This document shows positions 4,109 through 48,619 of a stretch of DNA of 64,000 bases, piece after piece. The stretch comes from Clostridium pasteurianum DSM 525 = ATCC 6013 (GTDB lineage Bacteria; Bacillota; Clostridia; Clostridiales; Clostridiaceae). The position numbers and the translations under genes are program-made. Position 1 is the stretch's first letter. Each line of letters starts with the position of its first letter. The stretch spans positions 650,384-714,383 of the forward strand of contig NZ_CP009268.1 in NCBI RefSeq assembly GCF_000807255.1. Reading direction: 5' to 3'. The notes beneath the pieces were generated by a model. That model did no database searches. It saw only the letters and a program-made list of their open reading frames with translations, and was not told the origin of the DNA.

Positions 4109-4765
4109 TTATTTTGTGTATTTGATTAAATCTTTAACTAAGTCTTGTACTGTAGTAGAAGGATTCATTTTAGATGGACAAAAAACACCATTTTGTTTAT
4201 GATGTAATAAAAGAGATTCACTTCTCTGTATAGCTGTTTCCACAAAAGGATAAGTAATATCAAATATTTTATTTATGCTTTTATTATAGATTCCTCTATT
4301 AATGTTATTTTCTTTAAAATGAGAAGTTAACTTGGAATAATAGTCTGCTCTAGAAATAGATGATTCTAAATATTGAAAATGAAGTAATAACCATAGCTCA
4401 AAGCATTCATTTGACCATGCAATATTTAATCCTTCTTTTTTAGCCATTTCTATAGCTTCGTCAAAATCTGAATTATCATCTTTATCAAAAACAACCCAAA
4501 CCTCACTGTAACTTCCTAAACTACGTTTTTTTATAGCTTCATTTACAAGAACTTTAGTAGATCTACCTGTACCTTCTATATTTAATGATATTTTATCAAC
4601 AATGATTTTATTTCTAAATAAATTTTCAATTATTTGTTTTATATTTTTAAAATAATTGACCTCAGTTTCAGTACCTTCAGTTACAATTAAATAGTTTCCA
4701 GGACCAGTTATTTTAGTATATTCATTTCTAGGGCGTTTACGTCCGCCTCTATTTAGCTTTACCAT
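4109..4765 (-). CDS. RloB / AbiLii-like protein with TOPRIM-like acidic motifs
   Basis: A 218-residue RloB-family protein. The N-terminus is basic (GGRKRPR). A TEGTETEVNYF motif near residue 28, VVFDKDD near residue 92 and NECFELWLLLHF near residue 118 supply a Glu, an Asp pair and a Glu in a TOPRIM-like order. RloB partners an AAA ATPase in restriction-linked loci and in the lactococcal AbiL phage-exclusion system. Its start overlaps the end of the ATPase gene by 17 bp, so the two are translationally coupled. The toxic activity of RloB is inferred from family context. Confidence 0.82.
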   Translation of the reverse strand: MVKLNRGGRKRPRNEYTKITGPGNYLIVTEGTETEVNYFKNIKQIIENLFRNKIIVDKISLNIEGTGRSTKVLVNEAIKKRSLGSYSEVWVVFDKDDNSDFDEAIEMAKKEGLNIAWSNECFELWLLLHFQYLESSISRADYYSKLTSHFKENNINRGIYNKSINKIFDITYPFVETAIQRSESLLLHHKQNGVFCPSKMNPSTTVQDLVKDLIKYTK

Positions 4766-5993
4766 TTTCTGTCCTCCACATATCGTAACCTCTTAATATA
4801 GGAACAGCACCATACTTACCTAAAAGATAATCTTTATTAAAGGATGCATCTTTTCTAACTTTTTTGTCATCAAATTTATACTCAATTAAAGAATAAAGAT
4901 GTGAAGTAGCATTTTCATCTTTTTCTGCAAACCATATTTGATCTCTTCTAAATATATCTTTAGTTAGTGTATAATTATCATGAGTTGTATAAATAAGCTG
5001 AGCATTATTTTTATTTATAGATTCGTTATGAAACATAATTAGGATATACCTCAAAAGTAATGGATGAAGTTTTGAATCAAGCTCGTCAATAAATATAGGT
5101 ATACCTAATTGAATTGACATCTTTAAAAAATAAAAAAGAGAAAACATCTTTTGAGTTCCACTAGATTCTTCAAAAAGAGGCATTTTATAGTAGTTTTTTC
5201 CGTCTTCTATTAAATGTTTTGTATAAATCTTATACTCAGATTTAAGAGTATTTTCATTTTTGTATTTTTCTATGATAATGCCATCTATATTAATATCTAT
5301 AGCTTTTAAAAATGTAGTCAAATCCCTTTGATAATTTTTATCTTCAATATTAGGTGCATATACTTGAGTCAATGCAGTTTCAAATCCTAAATCACCATAA
5401 TCTATAACAGCAAGTACTAAAAACCATTCAAAGACATCTTTAGCATAATCAATTTTAGCGTTTGATATTATAGAAAGAAACAAAGTTTTGTCTTCAACCA
5501 TATTAATAAAATTATTGGAACCTTTTAATAACTTTAAATTACATTCAATGTCAGAACCTGATCTTTCAAATAGAGGAGTATATTTATCCTTGCTGTCAGT
5601 TTTTTTTATATACAACCATTCTTCATGAATTTTATAATTATCTAAAGAAAAACCATATTGATATTCATTGCCTTTATATATAAAGAACACTTCAAACTCT
5701 GCGGGAATATTTTTACTTTCAGTATCAAAAGCAAATCTTTTAACTGGAATTTCATCATTATCAGATGAATTTTTAAAAGATTCTCTTATCCAGGCTTTCA
5801 TAAAACTAAAGGCCTTTATTACAGAACTTTTACCACTAGCATTTGCGCCATAAATGGCTGCAATCTTAATATATTTTTCATTCTTAATGTTTATGAGATT
5901 GTAAGGGTGTTCTGTAATAGAAGTGGCTGACATATCCAATGTAGTCATATCTCTAAAACTTTTAAAATTTTTAAAATTAAATTGTATTAACAT
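4749..5993 (-). CDS. RloA / AbiLi-like AAA family ATPase
   Basis: A 414-residue ATPase of the ABC/SMC-like AAA_15/AAA_21 type. It starts with a FKSF motif (IQFNFKNFKSF), then Walker A YGANASGKSS near residue 50, and late Walker B FIDELDSKLHP with a following TTHD switch histidine. This is the layout of OLD-, RloA- and AbiLi-type ATPases that sense phage and control a nuclease-like partner. The ATG at 5993 follows AAGGA by 10 bases; a GTG at 6002 is a weaker alternative. It is the first gene of a two-gene operon with RloB. Confidence 0.85.
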   Translation of the reverse strand: MLIQFNFKNFKSFRDMTTLDMSATSITEHPYNLINIKNEKYIKIAAIYGANASGKSSVIKAFSFMKAWIRESFKNSSDNDEIPVKRFAFDTESKNIPAEFEVFFIYKGNEYQYGFSLDNYKIHEEWLYIKKTDSKDKYTPLFERSGSDIECNLKLLKGSNNFINMVEDKTLFLSIISNAKIDYAKDVFEWFLVLAVIDYGDLGFETALTQVYAPNIEDKNYQRDLTTFLKAIDINIDGIIIEKYKNENTLKSEYKIYTKHLIEDGKNYYKMPLFEESSGTQKMFSLFYFLKMSIQLGIPIFIDELDSKLHPLLLRYILIMFHNESINKNNAQLIYTTHDNYTLTKDIFRRDQIWFAEKDENATSHLYSLIEYKFDDKKVRKDASFNKDYLLGKYGAVPILRGYDMWRTENGKAK

Positions 5994-6119
5994 TTTTCTC
6001 ACATCCTTATTATTATAATACTATATTTATCTAAGACAATGAACACTTGTGAGAAATTTTCTCATATAGTATTTTTGACATATATATTTTATATATACAT
6101 TATCCTAAATATTTTTAAG

Positions 6120-34388: not shown

Positions 34389-35120
34389 TTGAGAAACAAT
34401 ATAAAGTCAATCTGTGAATATGGTTTTACAGAGATGTTTAATAATGTTATTGATCACTCAGAGTCAGATACTGCAATTGTTTCTATAAAATATACTGCTC
34501 AGTGGATATCAATGATGATAATAGATAAAGGTATTGGTATATTTAATAAAATACAAGAGCATTTTAATTTATCAGATCCTAAGCAATCGATACTGGAATT
34601 ATCTAAGGGGAAGCTTACTTCTGATCCAGATAGACATTCTGGAGAGGGAATATTTTTTTCATCAAGAATGTTTGATGAGTTTAGAATTCTTTCTCAAGGA
34701 TTATTTTTTACTAGTAAACATGATTCTGACTGGATTATGGATTATAATGGTAAACCAGAAAATACAGGTACTTGTGTAGAGATGAAAATAAGCTTGAATT
34801 CAAATAGAAATATTAGTGAAGTATTCAATCAGTATAGTAATGATAATTTTGGTTTTTCTAAAACCATTGTACCAGTTAAATTGTTACAATATGAAGGAAT
34901 GGAATTAGTATCCCGTTCTCAAGCAAAGAGATTAATCACAAGATTTGATAGGTTTGAAGAGGTAATATTAAATTTTGATGGTATTTCTATTATTGGTCAG
35001 TCTTTTGCAGATGAACTATTTAGAATATTTAAGAATAATCACCCTAATGTACATATTCAATACATTAATGCTAATGAAAATGTAGAGGGAATGATTAAAC
35101 ATGTTTGTAATACTAAGTAG
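34389..35120 (+). CDS. GHKL ATPase fused to a STAS-like (DUF4325) domain, N-terminally short
   Basis: About 243 residues. The N-terminal two-thirds is a GHKL/HATPase domain: FTEMFNNVIDHSES is the N box, DKGIGIF the G1 box and HSGEGIFFSSRMFD the G2 box. The last 70 residues (RFEEVILNFDGISIIGQSFA) match the STAS-like DUF4325 domain. As I recall the family, homologues begin with about 90 residues of helix-turn-helix; here a stop lies just upstream (TAG near 34373), so that part is missing. The start is a TTG with no ribosome site, so expression is doubtful, although a good promoter lies at 34323. Related domains recur at 43.5-45.9 kb. Confidence 0.7.
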   Translation: MRNNIKSICEYGFTEMFNNVIDHSESDTAIVSIKYTAQWISMMIIDKGIGIFNKIQEHFNLSDPKQSILELSKGKLTSDPDRHSGEGIFFSSRMFDEFRILSQGLFFTSKHDSDWIMDYNGKPENTGTCVEMKISLNSNRNISEVFNQYSNDNFGFSKTIVPVKLLQYEGMELVSRSQAKRLITRFDRFEEVILNFDGISIIGQSFADELFRIFKNNHPNVHIQYINANENVEGMIKHVCNTK

Positions 35121-43531: not shown

Positions 43532-44328
43532 GTGATAATTGTGAATATATATTTTCCTAAAAGTTTAAAGTCAGATAAAAAAGGAATTGAATTTATTTCA
43601 TATGTTTGGGGTAAGTGTAAAAAAATATATTCATATAAGATTTTCTGGAATTTAAGGTTTACTTCAAATATTGAAACAAATCTTTTATCTGTATTAGGAA
43701 TAATTATAGATAAACTTATGAAAAAAGGTAACAAAATTTTTATAGAATTAAGAGATAATAAAGGAATATTGAGAACTATTTCTAGCAATATAATTGAAGA
43801 ATTATTTATGAAGTACTCTGAATTTAAATTTAAGGCATTGCAATATAAATATATAAATTTTTCTATTGTAAATAATGAAATAGATAAATATCTAAATGAA
43901 GATTTAAAAGAACTAAGATTAAAAGAATTTGAGAAAGTAAAAATAATACTTAGTGAGCTTATTGCAAACATAAAAATGCATGCATCTTCAAAACAAGGTT
44001 CTATATCAGCATTCATAGATATAAAAAAAGATGAGTTAGTTGTAAGTGTATGTAATATAGGAAAGACTATAAAGCAGAATATTGAAGAAAAAGTTAATTA
44101 TAATTTTGATAATGATTTAGATGCAATTCTTTGGCTGAATTAAATAAATGGTTTTATAATGAAAAGAATGTAAACGAAATAGATATTTCGGATAGTTTAA
44201 TAATAAATAGTTTTTTCCCTGGAACATTAATAACTATTAGTATTGACTATGATAAAAATGAAGGTGCTTATGAAAATTATTTTGTAAAAGAATTTGATTT
44301 GTTTCAAATATTTAACATTAAAGAATAA
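43532..44328 (+). pseudogene. GHKL ATPase with STAS-like N-terminus, broken by a deletion/frameshift
   Basis: The first frame (43532-44143) has an N-terminal region patterned like a STAS domain (ETNLLSVLGIIIDKLMKKGN, then KIFIELRDNKG) and then a GHKL N box, ILSELIANIKMHASS, and a short G1-like VCNIGKTI. It stops after DLDAILWLN. The next 65 codons, in another frame from about 44131 (SLAELNKWFYNEKN...FFPGTLITISI), are the C-terminal strands of the same domain. The G2 box (GGxGL) expected between them is missing, so roughly 20-25 codons appear deleted. As written it cannot bind ATP normally. The start is GTG 43532 or 43541. Confidence 0.65.
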
Positions 44329-44336
44329 GAGGAAAA

Positions 44337-45608
44337 ATGATGAATTGTATTATATATTTTTTAACTGATTATTATCAAAAAAGCTTAAGAAGTTTAGCTC
44401 AGACTCAAGCTGATTCATATGAAGAGGTCTTAGATAAATATAAAAAAATATTTATCTCACATTTGAATTATGTAAAAAATAAAAAATGCAACTTTGAGTC
44501 TTGCAAGTTTGGTTGTAATAATGAATGTAGTAATCTAAAAGAAATAATTAAGAATATAGATGTTAATAAAATACAGGATTTTTTTGATACAATAAAGAAA
44601 ATATATATAAATTGGATAGATGCAAAGACAAGTGATTCGCTAAATGAATTAAAGACTTTGTTACATAATTTTAAAATGATTGATTTTAAGGCAGAAGATA
44701 TTACAAAAGAATTATTTTTTAAAGGAAGGCTAAGTGAACAAATATTAACAACATGGCAGATGTTTCACATACCGTTTAATAAACGTTATCTTATTAGCAA
44801 TCAAAGATATAGTTTAACTGGACAACCGTTAATTTATTTGGGTAAATCAGTTATTGATGTTGTAGAAGAGTTGGAAGTAAGTCAAGAACAATTATCATTG
44901 TTAAAAGTTTCAACTTTTGAAATAAAAGAAAACTTGAGGGTATATGATTTAAGAAATGATATATATAATGACGTTATAAATGCAAAAATAGAAAGTAGAA
45001 TATTAGGTAATGATAGTAAGGAAATAATAAATGAAGGTAAATTTTTTAAAAACATACTATCATCAATATGTAGTTTTCAAAAAAGAAAAGAACATAGAAA
45101 TTTTTCCTTCTGTGAAGAATATGTACTTCCACAGGTGTTAGCTCAAACATTAAAAAATGAATTATTTCATGGTATAATATATCATTCCACAAAAAAGTTT
45201 AATAATATAAACTTTGAAATTTCATCTGAAGAAGATAGTTGGATACAATACATAAAAAGAACAAAATATAAAGAAAATGTTGCATTGTTTACTCATTTCA
45301 ACGATGAGCATGTATATGATAGAAACTTATATGAGAAACTTACTATAAGTACTCCAATAGATATTGCAAAATTAAACACTATAAAAATCGATGATTTGAA
45401 AAATATTCAAGCTGAAATTAATCAAACTAAGAAGCAAGATATGATTTCAATTTGTGAAACATTATTATCTAAATTTGATAGAGAATTTTCACAATGTTGT
45501 ATAAATGAGAAAAAATATCGCGAAACAAATATAGGTCAGCTGCATATATATCATTTGTATAGTATTTTTAATAGAATTTTAACTCAGTGTAATGAAGAGG
45601 TGAAGTAA
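44337..45608 (+). CDS. RES-domain protein with N-terminal Cys cluster
   Basis: A 423-residue protein. An N-terminal helical region contains a CX4CX3CX3C cluster (C51, C56, C60, C64), likely zinc-binding. The central part matches the RES domain: QRYSLTGQPLIYLGKS with Arg157, VVEELE with Glu177/178, and HGIIYHSTKKF with Ser284, giving the R-E-S triad in order. Characterised RES toxins degrade NAD+. The usual RES-Xre antitoxin is absent; instead the gene lies between a GHKL ATPase remnant and a STAS-like gene. AAGAGG precedes the ATG. The RES assignment comes from reading motifs and should be verified. Confidence 0.65.
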   Translation: MMNCIIYFLTDYYQKSLRSLAQTQADSYEEVLDKYKKIFISHLNYVKNKKCNFESCKFGCNNECSNLKEIIKNIDVNKIQDFFDTIKKIYINWIDAKTSDSLNELKTLLHNFKMIDFKAEDITKELFFKGRLSEQILTTWQMFHIPFNKRYLISNQRYSLTGQPLIYLGKSVIDVVEELEVSQEQLSLLKVSTFEIKENLRVYDLRNDIYNDVINAKIESRILGNDSKEIINEGKFFKNILSSICSFQKRKEHRNFSFCEEYVLPQVLAQTLKNELFHGIIYHSTKKFNNINFEISSEEDSWIQYIKRTKYKENVALFTHFNDEHVYDRNLYEKLTISTPIDIAKLNTIKIDDLKNIQAEINQTKKQDMISICETLLSKFDREFSQCCINEKKYRETNIGQLHIYHLYSIFNRILTQCNEEVK

Positions 45609-45914
45609 ATGGAGAAAGTTATAAAGGTCATTGATTTACTAAATTCTATATCAGCAGATGATGATGAAAAGGGAAATAAAGTATTCAATAGTATCGTTAA
45701 TAGTGCAAATGAAAAATACGATAATATAATATTAAACTTTGAAGGTATAAGTTTAATTAATACAGCTTTTCTTAATAATGCTATGGGAAAGATATGTGGA
45801 TTAGAAGAATTTGAAAGTGGGAAAGTGAATGTAAAGGTGGCCAACTTTCCAAAAGAAGCAATTGAACTTTTAAGGGAAGTGTTAAAAACTGCTAGTGAAA
45901 AATATTCAAAATAA
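45609..45914 (+). CDS. Stand-alone STAS-like (DUF4325) protein
   Basis: A 101-residue single-domain protein. The pattern YDNIILNFEGISLINTAFLN is the DUF4325/STAS-like core also seen at the C-terminus of the protein at 34389. The ATG abuts the stop codon of the RES gene, with AGAGGTGA inside that gene, so the two are translationally coupled. By analogy with STAS/GHKL pairs it could bind the ATPase or restrain the RES protein; this is inference. Confidence 0.75.
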   Translation: MEKVIKVIDLLNSISADDDEKGNKVFNSIVNSANEKYDNIILNFEGISLINTAFLNNAMGKICGLEEFESGKVNVKVANFPKEAIELLREVLKTASEKYSK

Positions 45915-46533: not shown

Positions 46534-47340
46534 TTAAATTGTAAGATCAATTTCACTCTGAGATTTATAAACTGTATCTGAATTAATAGAAGTAAGTCTT
46601 TCATTAGCACCAGAGATAAGGCACATTCTCGTTAGAGAATTTAGTGGTCTTATAGCTCCATTAGTGCTTGAATAAATGAGTTCAAAAGCATCATCAGTAA
46701 AAATTGGTTCTGAACAGCCTGCGGCTTTTAGCATAGAAGTTATGTAGGGCTTACATTCATCATGCGTTAGCCCTTTTAAGCAATAATTCATTATGATTCG
46801 TTGACGTAGTGCTTCATGGACCTGCCTGCTGAGTTGAAGTAAAAAATTAGGTTGACCTGAAAGAATTAACATAGCATAATTCTTTGAGTCCATATGAAAA
46901 TTAAATATTATTCTTAAATCATCAAGAATGGAATTGCTTAAAAATTGACATTCATCAATTATAATAACTGGAATTACATTTTTACTGTGGCTATAAGTGT
47001 ATATAGACTCTTGTATTTGCTTAAACATAGTTACTTTTTTCTGAGCATGAATTATTCCAAGACCATCGCATAATGCTCTATAGAAGTCCATAACAGTTAA
47101 AGTGGAAATAGGAATGTATACGCACTTATATAAATTTGGATTTAGTGAATCTACAAAATTGCGGAGCAAGAAAGACTTACCAACTCCAGGCTCTCCAGTA
47201 ATAACGCCAATCCCTAAAACAGATTTTAAAAATTCTAATCTATTCATTGCTTTAGAGAAATCCTCAGATTTAAAACTGTATTTTAAGTCAAGATTTTTAT
47301 CAAAAGGATCAAAAGTTAAGCCATAAAAAGCTTTATACAT
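46534..47340 (-). CDS. Transposition AAA ATPase (ExeA/TniB-like)
   Basis: A 268-residue ATPase starting MYKAFYGLTFDPFDKNLDLK, a typical ExeA-like start. Walker A is GEPGVGKSF, Walker B is VIIIDECQFLS, and a sensor-like SGQPNFLLQLSR follows. Such ATPases select targets and activate the DDE transposase in Tn552/Tn5053/IS21-like elements. It lies 15 bp after the transposase with a good GGAGG site, so the two are co-expressed. Confidence 0.88.
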   Translation of the reverse strand: MYKAFYGLTFDPFDKNLDLKYSFKSEDFSKAMNRLEFLKSVLGIGVITGEPGVGKSFLLRNFVDSLNPNLYKCVYIPISTLTVMDFYRALCDGLGIIHAQKKVTMFKQIQESIYTYSHSKNVIPVIIIDECQFLSNSILDDLRIIFNFHMDSKNYAMLILSGQPNFLLQLSRQVHEALRQRIIMNYCLKGLTHDECKPYITSMLKAAGCSEPIFTDDAFELIYSSTNGAIRPLNSLTRMCLISGANERLTSINSDTVYKSQSEIDLTI

Positions 47341-47355
47341 AATATCAACCTCCGG

Positions 47356-48619
47356 TTAGTTAGCTTCAAAGGCAGAAAAATCAACAGAATTAGTATTGTT
47401 AGTTCTTCTGATTTTTGAATTATCAATTTTTTTAACAGGGAAAATAGTATCTTCAAGTTTACCATCCTGTGAAAAAATATAAGCTTTATCAATAGATGAT
47501 GGATCATAGCGTATATTTATTTTGTCACCAACATATTTTAGTGGTACTTCAAATATTTTTGTACCTATAGATACTGTGGAGTCATTTTTTACAGTACGGA
47601 GTACTTTATATAAAAATAAATAGTCTAGTTCAGTTTTAGAATCAATAAATCTTATATTTTCAACATTAGACATGTACTTATCAATTGGTTTTTTGTTTAT
47701 TGAGGAATGTATAGTGTTGTTATAACTGTTAACATAACCCGACAGGGATTCATTTAAAAGATCTATAGATTTAAAATCATTCCAATTAATTGAATTCATC
47801 CATTGTTTTTGCATAGTTTGGAACCATCTTTCAATTTTGCCCTTAGATTGAGGGGAATATGGTCTTGCAAAACTTAAAATACTACCAAGAGCTGCACAAA
47901 TCAAATGAAATTGCTCACTTTTATATATCTTTCCATTATCAACGAAAACTTTTTTAGGAATTCCCTTTGATGCTACCGCATCTTTAAATACAGACATAAG
48001 AGATAAAAGATCATCTTTAAAAAATGCTTTGCATCCTACAATGACTCTACTGGAATCATCTAAAAAAGCTATAATATAAGTCTTGAATTTTTTTATCTTC
48101 TATAGTAAGGTAAGGACCTACAGATACGTCAGATTGCCAGCATTCATTGGAAAACTCAAATTCAAAGGCTCTTCTATCATCAGGTACAAGCTTTTTAGAA
48201 CCTATCTTAGCCTTATTTATAAATCTAGTTACTGTTGACAGGGAAATACTAGTTTCACTTTCAAAACCTTTAGCTATAACTTCATGATATATGTACTTGG
48301 CAGTTTTTTTAGGTGAATTTAATTTACTGTTTATAATAAATTCTTTGGTTTCATTTGAAATTTTTCTGGAAGTACCTTTATCAGCTCTTGATTTTGGATA
48401 TAAGCCATCAATACCATATTTCCTATATTGAACTAGCCATCCTTTGATTGTTGCAGGAGAATACTCTTTTTTCTTGCCGTTAGGCAGTGTATAAGACTTT
48501 GCTGCAATTTCTGCTAAATAATCTTTTACAGAAGTCTGAGTAAATGTATTGGTTATAATGGGTGCAATCAGAGAATAACGAAATAATGCTATCTTTTGAT
48601 TAAATTCTTTTAATATCAT
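47356..48619 (-). pseudogene. DDE (rve) transposase split by a frameshift at an A7 tract
   Basis: Read from 48619 downward: an N-terminal helix-turn-helix (TIKGWLVQYRKYGIDGLYPK) and the first catalytic Asp in ECWQSDVSVG. The frame then ends at 48056 (YYSFFR). Removing one A from the A7 run (T7 on the + strand at 48088-48094) restores EDKKFKTYIIAFLDDSSRVI and runs into the second part, with VDNGK (second Asp) and SKGKIERWFQ (Glu). So all DDE residues exist but in two frames. It is a single-base indel, or a slippage site used for expression. Confidence 0.82.

What the first reader, a model, noticed from the sequence alone, without database searches (positions are those of the whole stretch)
43532..45914. 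GHKL ATPase + RES-domain protein + STAS-like protein: a candidate undescribed effector system
Seen: one strand, three adjacent units, the last two coupled by abutting stop and start. The middle protein carries an Arg-Glu-Ser triad in RES order (R157, E177/178, S284) plus a CX4CX3CX3C cluster; the first has GHKL motifs; the last is a DUF4325/STAS-like domain. Known: RES toxins act on NAD+ and are normally held by Xre antitoxins; STAS and GHKL domains form partner-switching pairs (SpoIIAA/SpoIIAB, RsbS/RsbT). Inference: an NAD-depleting effector controlled by a GHKL/STAS switch instead of Xre, perhaps in phage defence or stress arrest. I know of no described system with these three parts.
Basis: partly seen in the sequence, partly recalled or inferred. 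Interest (0 to 1): 0.78.

Follow-up and report, generated by a model that had tools for sequence, protein, structure and literature searches.

The report
Kinase–STAS switch over a RES toxin
Three bacterial genes look like a poison enzyme of the NAD-attacking RES kind, an inhibitor that holds it off and a kinase that would release it; this re-wires the VapKSC toxin switch published in 2026 around a different toxin, but in this genome the kinase gene is broken.

Summary
The three units exist at the stated place and recur elsewhere as a conserved operon. (1) The first gene is a STAS-like plus GHKL kinase related end to end to VapK. In this window it is a pseudogene: about 41 residues including the G2 ATP-binding box are deleted and the frame is broken. 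(2) The 423-residue protein is a divergent RES-superfamily enzyme. R131, R157, Y167, E178 and N314 are invariant in 23 relatives, and S284 is kept in close kin. (3) The DUF4325 protein is homologous to the antitoxin VapS (PDB 9Z7O, E=2e-10), and its conserved Thr/Ser falls on the VapS phosphosite S48. Among 11 close loci the STAS gene is always next to RES. The kinase is intact in 6 and was lost or broken at least four separate times, without loss of RES or STAS. Best reading: STAS is the antitoxin and the kinase the activator, a VapKSC-like switch in which RES replaces the PIN nuclease VapC. Intact copies lie in prophage lysogeny regions or behind type I R-M specificity genes, which suggests anti-phage or DNA-damage growth arrest. 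The RES version is not in the literature I could search. Toxicity, phosphorylation, NAD loss and defence are untested.

The parts
43532..44143 (+). Kinase pseudogene, 5' fragment: STAS-like N-terminus, then N box (ELIANIKMHA, about 43955-43984) and G1-like box (VCNIG, about 44048-44062)
   Evidence: K HMM positions 5-205 of 306, E=1.8e-33; homologous to VapK through intact relatives
44131..44140 (+). Deletion/frameshift junction (about 44134/44135): about 41 codons with the G2 box lost relative to intact relatives
44131..44328 (+). Kinase pseudogene, 3' fragment in another frame with G3 box (FPGTLITI, about 44214-44240)
   Evidence: K HMM positions 247-299, E=8e-4
44337..45608 (+). RES-like protein, 423 aa: N-terminal helical region (1 to about 115, with a variable Cys/His cluster), RES core (about 126-317), C-terminal helical region
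   Evidence: (model pLDDT 86, pTM 0.88)
44727..45278 (+). RES catalytic-site candidates: R131 (44727-29), R157 (44805-07), Y167 (44835-37), E178 (44868-70), S284 (45186-88), N314 (45276-78)
   Evidence: alignment to the RES protein L045; NatT active-site residues from PMC11535050
45609..45914 (+). DUF4325/STAS-like protein, VapS homologue and proposed antitoxin; translationally coupled to RES
45762..45764 (+). T52 codon, the predicted phospho-switch residue (aligns with VapS S48)

Best explanation
A kinase-switched toxin-antitoxin operon, order kinase - RES effector - STAS antitoxin. In resting cells the STAS/DUF4325 protein binds the RES enzyme and keeps it inactive. A signal, probably DNA damage or single-stranded DNA as for CapK and VapK, activates the STAS-GHKL kinase. 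The kinase phosphorylates the conserved Thr/Ser (T52) of the STAS protein, which lets go of RES, and RES then attacks NAD+ or ADP-ribosylates a target and stops growth, plausibly as abortive infection. In this window the kinase has decayed and only the RES-STAS pair remains, so this copy is either locked off or works as a plain two-gene toxin-antitoxin pair. Shown here: homologies, conserved residues, operon conservation, repeated kinase loss, and purifying selection on RES-STAS in one kinase-less lineage. Inferred: binding, phosphorylation, NAD chemistry, trigger and defence role.
For: Kinase: hhalign of 3 intact kinases to a VapK from an annotated K-STAS-PIN operon, 99.6% probability, E=4.7e-24 over 256 columns. 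STAS: hits VapS 9Z7O at E=1.8e-10, with T52 at VapS S48; Thr in 10 of 11, Ser in one. RES: profile match to a bona fide RES protein, 93.7%, E=1.8e-7, against 0.6% for two unrelated controls; SPbeta YopC, annotated RES, at E=6e-12. Operon: STAS beside RES in 11/11, kinase intact in 6/11. Every kinase-less branch has a kinase-bearing relative beside it, so at least four losses, with STAS never lost; no second kinase in G000, G102 or G103. dN/dS 0.073 (RES) and 0.024 (STAS) between two kinase-less sister species. Context: lysogeny region in L047 and L050, type I HsdS upstream in L020, L021 and L038. VapKSC shows the same logic experimentally (PMC13373217).
Against: Nothing was measured. The STAS proteins mostly lack the VapS C-terminal helix (94-116) that VapS needs to inhibit VapC, so RES would have to be held differently. 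The aromatic residue implicated in ssDNA sensing is W/Y in only 3 of 6 intact kinases. Foldseek gave no significant RES hit. PF08808 scores stay below the curated cut-off. In this window the kinase is broken, and the nearest defence-like genes (AbiL-like) are 38 kb away.
Confidence: 0.62

Rival explanations
1. Two-gene toxin-antitoxin pair: RES and STAS alone form the functional unit and the kinase is an optional add-on with another role, for example expression control.
For: RES-STAS persists without an intact kinase in 5 of 11 loci and is under purifying selection in L017/L018.
Against: The kinase is intact in 6 loci across three clades and is inferred to be ancestral; the Thr/Ser phosphosite is conserved even where the kinase is gone.
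Confidence: 0.2
2. The kinase is the inhibitor (anti-sigma-like) and STAS is the activator, as in SpoIIAB/SpoIIAA partner switching.
For: GHKL anti-sigma factors inhibit by direct binding (general knowledge; no tool result here).
Against: At least four kinase losses with an intact RES gene kept; losing an inhibitor of a toxin should be lethal. The VapS homologue is an antitoxin by experiment.
Confidence: 0.05
3. A transcriptional regulator cassette like CapKS, with RES as the regulated gene and not a protein partner of STAS.
For: Kinase and STAS are of the CapK/CapS superfamily; weak hit to CapS 9Z72, E=0.18.
Against: The STAS protein has no wHTH domain (98-129 aa, STAS only), and its gene lies downstream of RES, coupled to it.
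Confidence: 0.05
4. The middle protein has a RES-like scaffold but is not an NAD-acting toxin (different substrate, or inactive).
For: Weak PF08808 scores; no significant Foldseek match.
Against: Known RES active-site residues are invariant in 23 relatives spread over phages and bacteria, and dN/dS is low.
Confidence: 0.08

Closest known systems
VapKSC (PMC13373217, EMBO J 2026)
   Same: STAS-GHKL kinase homologous over its whole length; STAS antitoxin homologous, with a conserved Ser/Thr phosphosite; three-gene operon with a growth-stopping effector; some copies near defence genes
   Different: Effector is RES-like instead of a PIN nuclease; order K-RES-S instead of K-S-C; most STAS proteins lack the VapS C-terminal helix; the ssDNA-contact aromatic is only sometimes present; the kinase is often lost
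CapK/CapS (PMC13373217)
   Same: STAS-GHKL kinase plus STAS partner associated with defence genes, often behind R-M operons
   Different: No HTH on the kinase, no wHTH on the STAS protein; not an expression controller by architecture
RES-Xre toxin-antitoxin modules (ParTS, MbcTA, NatRT, GndRX)
   Same: RES core with the same R, Y, E, S and N residues; GndRX links a RES toxin to NAD loss under DNA damage (PMC12457610)
   Different: No Xre antitoxin; large extra N- and C-terminal helical regions; very divergent in sequence
SPbeta YopC and P2-like phage RES proteins (Bacillus phage SPBc2, Escherichia phage Cartapus)
   Same: Same long RES subfamily, carried by temperate phages
   Different: No adjacent kinase or STAS gene is annotated

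Membership tests
VapKSC | STAS-GHKL kinase of VapK type | tested here: met
   Met in intact relatives; the window copy is a broken remnant
VapKSC | VapS-like STAS protein with absolutely conserved Ser/Thr phosphosite | tested here: met
   E=1.8e-10 to 9z7o_A; T52 aligned with S48; Thr 10/11, Ser 1/11
VapKSC | PIN-domain VapC toxin | tested here: not met
   Effector is RES-like; profile comparison to the D. gobiensis PIN protein 0.6%
VapKSC | VapS C-terminal helix needed for inhibition | tested here: not met
   Only a few to about 22 residues follow the STAS core, most under 13
VapKSC | Aromatic ssDNA contact in the kinase (VapK F54 / CapK W68) | tested here: inconclusive
   W or Y in L047, L048, L050; V in L021, L033; N in L019 and the window; position inferred by alignment to the D. 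gobiensis VapK
VapKSC | Phospho-release of the toxin, phage protection | not testable with these tools
   Needs biochemistry and phage assays
RES domain superfamily | Conserved Arg-Glu-Ser and other pocket residues (R, R, Y, E, S, N) | tested here: met
   R131, R157, Y167, E178, N314 invariant in 23 sequences; S284 invariant in the close clade
RES domain superfamily | Pfam PF08808 above the curated cut-off | tested here: not met
   Best are YopC 22.4 and L023 20.7 bits against 23.2; the window protein has no hit
RES domain superfamily | Profile-level homology to a bona fide RES protein | tested here: met
   hhalign 93.7%, E=1.8e-7, controls 0.6%
RES domain superfamily | RES/ART fold | tested here: inconclusive
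   First model: ParT structures are the four top hits but E 0.5-1.1; better model: none; some ART-like viral models, not significant
RES domain superfamily | NAD+ degradation or ADP-ribosylation | not testable with these tools
   Needs an assay
RES-Xre toxin-antitoxin | Adjacent Xre/MbcA/ParS antitoxin | tested here: not met
   The operon partner is DUF4325, not an Xre-type protein
CapKS | STAS-wHTH repressor | tested here: not met
   STAS only, 98-129 aa
HEPN/RES-NTD1 proteins (PMC3710099) | Recognisable HEPN/RES N-terminal domain | tested here: not met
   No such Pfam model matched at E<=1; a variable Cys/His site is present

The most novel reading that the evidence does not exclude
A new class of immune or stress module in which a DNA-damage-sensing kinase releases an NAD-attacking RES enzyme from a STAS antitoxin, carried by prophages and type I R-M loci. 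This would be the first RES effector under phosphorylation control and among the first with a defence role.
Probability: 0.5. Interest if true: 0.75.

Novelty: new variant of a known kind. Interest (0 to 1): 0.6.

Why it matters
It would show that the kinase-STAS switch of VapKSC is an exchangeable controller for unrelated toxins. It would also give RES enzymes, whose role in immunity is stated to be unknown (PMC11535050), a trigger and a phage-linked setting. Repeated kinase loss offers natural off-switch mutants for testing which part is the antitoxin.

Tried and rejected
Intact kinase with a sequencing slip: rejected, because a 41-residue stretch is also missing. A trans-acting second kinase in the same genome: none found. 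The Cys cluster as a defining zinc site: rejected as general, since relatives carry CxxC plus CxxH, other Cys sets or none. Death-like (bDLD2) and Csm2 hits: E 0.28 and 0.11, chance. Plasmid carriage of close RES relatives: none. Foldseek as proof of the RES fold: not significant, kept as inconclusive. Defence island in the window: only an AbiL-like pair 38 kb away and scattered ATPase-type matches that were not all traced to their genes. The genome-contig scan with the RES alignment gave 7 loci; phylum and class samples added only distant RES relatives.

Full report
WHAT IS THERE. The three units are real ORFs on the + strand: 43532-44143, 44337-45608 (423 aa) and 45609-45914 (101 aa). The stop codon of the second abuts the ATG of the third. 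The third is DUF4325 (PF14213, E=1.2e-8). The middle one has no Pfam, NCBIfam or PADLOC match of note. The window lies in a 4.35-Mb single-contig genome. Named relatives of the same family are Clostridium species, so the host is a member of the Clostridiaceae (inference).

THE KINASE IS BROKEN HERE. Intact relatives (L019, L021, L033, L047, L048, L050) are 301-330 aa with an N-terminal STAS-like region and N, G1, G2 and G3 boxes. A six-frame search with an HMM of these finds, in the window, positions 5-205 in one frame and 247-299 in another. Positions 206-246, with the G2 box, are deleted and the frame is shifted near 44134. No other copy of this kinase was found in the genome.

THE KINASE AND THE STAS PROTEIN BELONG TO A PUBLISHED SWITCH. 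A 2026 paper (PMC13373217) describes CapK/CapS and the toxin-antitoxin system VapKSC: a STAS-GHKL kinase is proposed to phosphorylate a conserved Ser/Thr in a STAS antitoxin and so free the PIN toxin VapC; [quoted passage not shown] The DUF4325 profile finds VapS (9Z7O) at E=1.8e-10, and the invariant T52 of the window protein falls on chain residue S66, which is native S48 after an 18-residue tag (offset computed from the lengths 134 and 116). In 11 STAS proteins the residue is Thr (10) or Ser (1). The kinase aligns over 256 columns with VapK of Deinococcus gobiensis, which lies in an annotated kinase-STAS-PIN operon (99.6%, E=4.7e-24).

THE MIDDLE PROTEIN IS RES-LIKE. Across 23 relatives R131, H144, R157, S159, G162, P164, Y167, E178, E261, Y262 and N314 are invariant. 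S284 is invariant in the close clade. NatT, a studied RES toxin, uses R23, R82, Y93, S184 and N193 (PMC11535050); I match these by motif order to R131, R157, Y167, S284 and N314 (inference, supported by the alignment). SPbeta YopC, annotated as RES, is found at E=6e-12. PF08808 gives E=1.4e-4 (YopC), 4.6e-4 (L023) and 2.3e-3 (L047), all under the curated cut-off. hhalign to L045, a bona fide RES protein (over the PF08808 cut-off, related to annotated RES NAD+ phosphorylases), gives 93.7% and E=1.8e-7; two unrelated controls give 0.6%. The structure test is not decisive. A 7-sequence model (pLDDT 65) had four ParT chains as its top PDB hits, but at E 0.5-1.1. A 23-sequence model (pLDDT 86, pTM 0.88) had no RES hit. 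I therefore call it RES-superfamily by sequence, fold unproven.

THE OPERON IS CONSERVED AND THE KINASE IS DISPENSABLE. Of 13 close RES loci, one is cut by the contig end (L038) and one divergent locus lacks both partners (L034). In the other 11 the STAS gene is adjacent every time. The kinase is full length in six, truncated in two (window, L020) and absent in three (L017, L018, L022). On the RES tree every kinase-less branch has a kinase-bearing relative beside it: window/L033, L020/L021, L017+L018/L019, and L022 beside L050 and L020/L021. That is at least four losses of the kinase and none of STAS. Between the kinase-less sister species, dN/dS is 0.073 for RES and 0.024 for STAS against 0.111 for the next gene. 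If the kinase were the inhibitor of a toxin, losing it would be lethal, so the pattern fits STAS as antitoxin and kinase as activator, as in VapKSC. The sample is small and this remains an inference.

SETTING. In the viral contigs L047 and L050 the complete triplet lies in the lysogeny region, beside a repressor-like HTH gene, an IrrE-type peptidase and an integrase or recombinase. In L020, L021 and L038 it follows a type I specificity gene. Published CapKS genes also often follow R-M operons. In the window itself I see no dense defence island; an AbiL-like pair lies at 4109-6002.

DIFFERENCES FROM VapKSC. The effector is RES-like and not PIN; the order is K-RES-S; the STAS proteins mostly lack the C-terminal helix that VapS needs to inhibit VapC; and the aromatic residue tied to ssDNA sensing is present in only three of six intact kinases. 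I therefore do not file it as VapKSC, but as a system that works like it. No paper in the searched library joins RES with DUF4325 or with this switch; that library holds open-licence PMC papers only.

VERDICT. Real and conserved, a new variant of a very recently described kind; the window holds a decayed copy. Function is inferred and can be tested with simple expression experiments.

Noticed in passing
window 4109-6002 (-): AbiL-like pair: 417-aa AbiLi/AriA-type ATPase (E=9e-91) and 218-aa AbiLii (E=1e-27), a candidate anti-phage system.
   Followed up: partly
window 34389-35120 (+): A second DUF4325 protein, fused to a GHKL domain (PF14213 E=1.4e-14, HATPase_c_2 E=5e-6), next to an Fe-type alcohol dehydrogenase gene.
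   Followed up: no
window 13189, 18706, 24342, 37879 (+): Four 570-aa methyl-accepting chemotaxis protein paralogues, 30-57% identical to each other.
   Followed up: partly
window 46534-48619 (-): Transposition genes: AAA ATPase, integrase-like part with a weak TnsB match, and an HTH part; the transposase looks split in two ORFs.
   Followed up: no
L061 4623-5951; L062 3623-4828: Long RES proteins in temperate phages: SPbeta YopC near the AimP lysogeny genes, and a P2-like phage RES gene directly after the integrase.
   Followed up: partly
L034 5001-6293: Close RES relative with neither kinase nor STAS partner; the neighbour is an unidentified 589-aa protein.
   Followed up: no
L093 4835-6235 (-): DUF4325 gene beside a short STAS-like ORF and a Fic/Doc-like protein (by eye): possibly another effector on the same switch.
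   Followed up: no
RES N-terminus in L020, L021, L034, L047, L050: CxxC at the start plus a Cys/His pair near residue 50 suggest a zinc site, lost or remodelled in other relatives including the window.
   Followed up: partly
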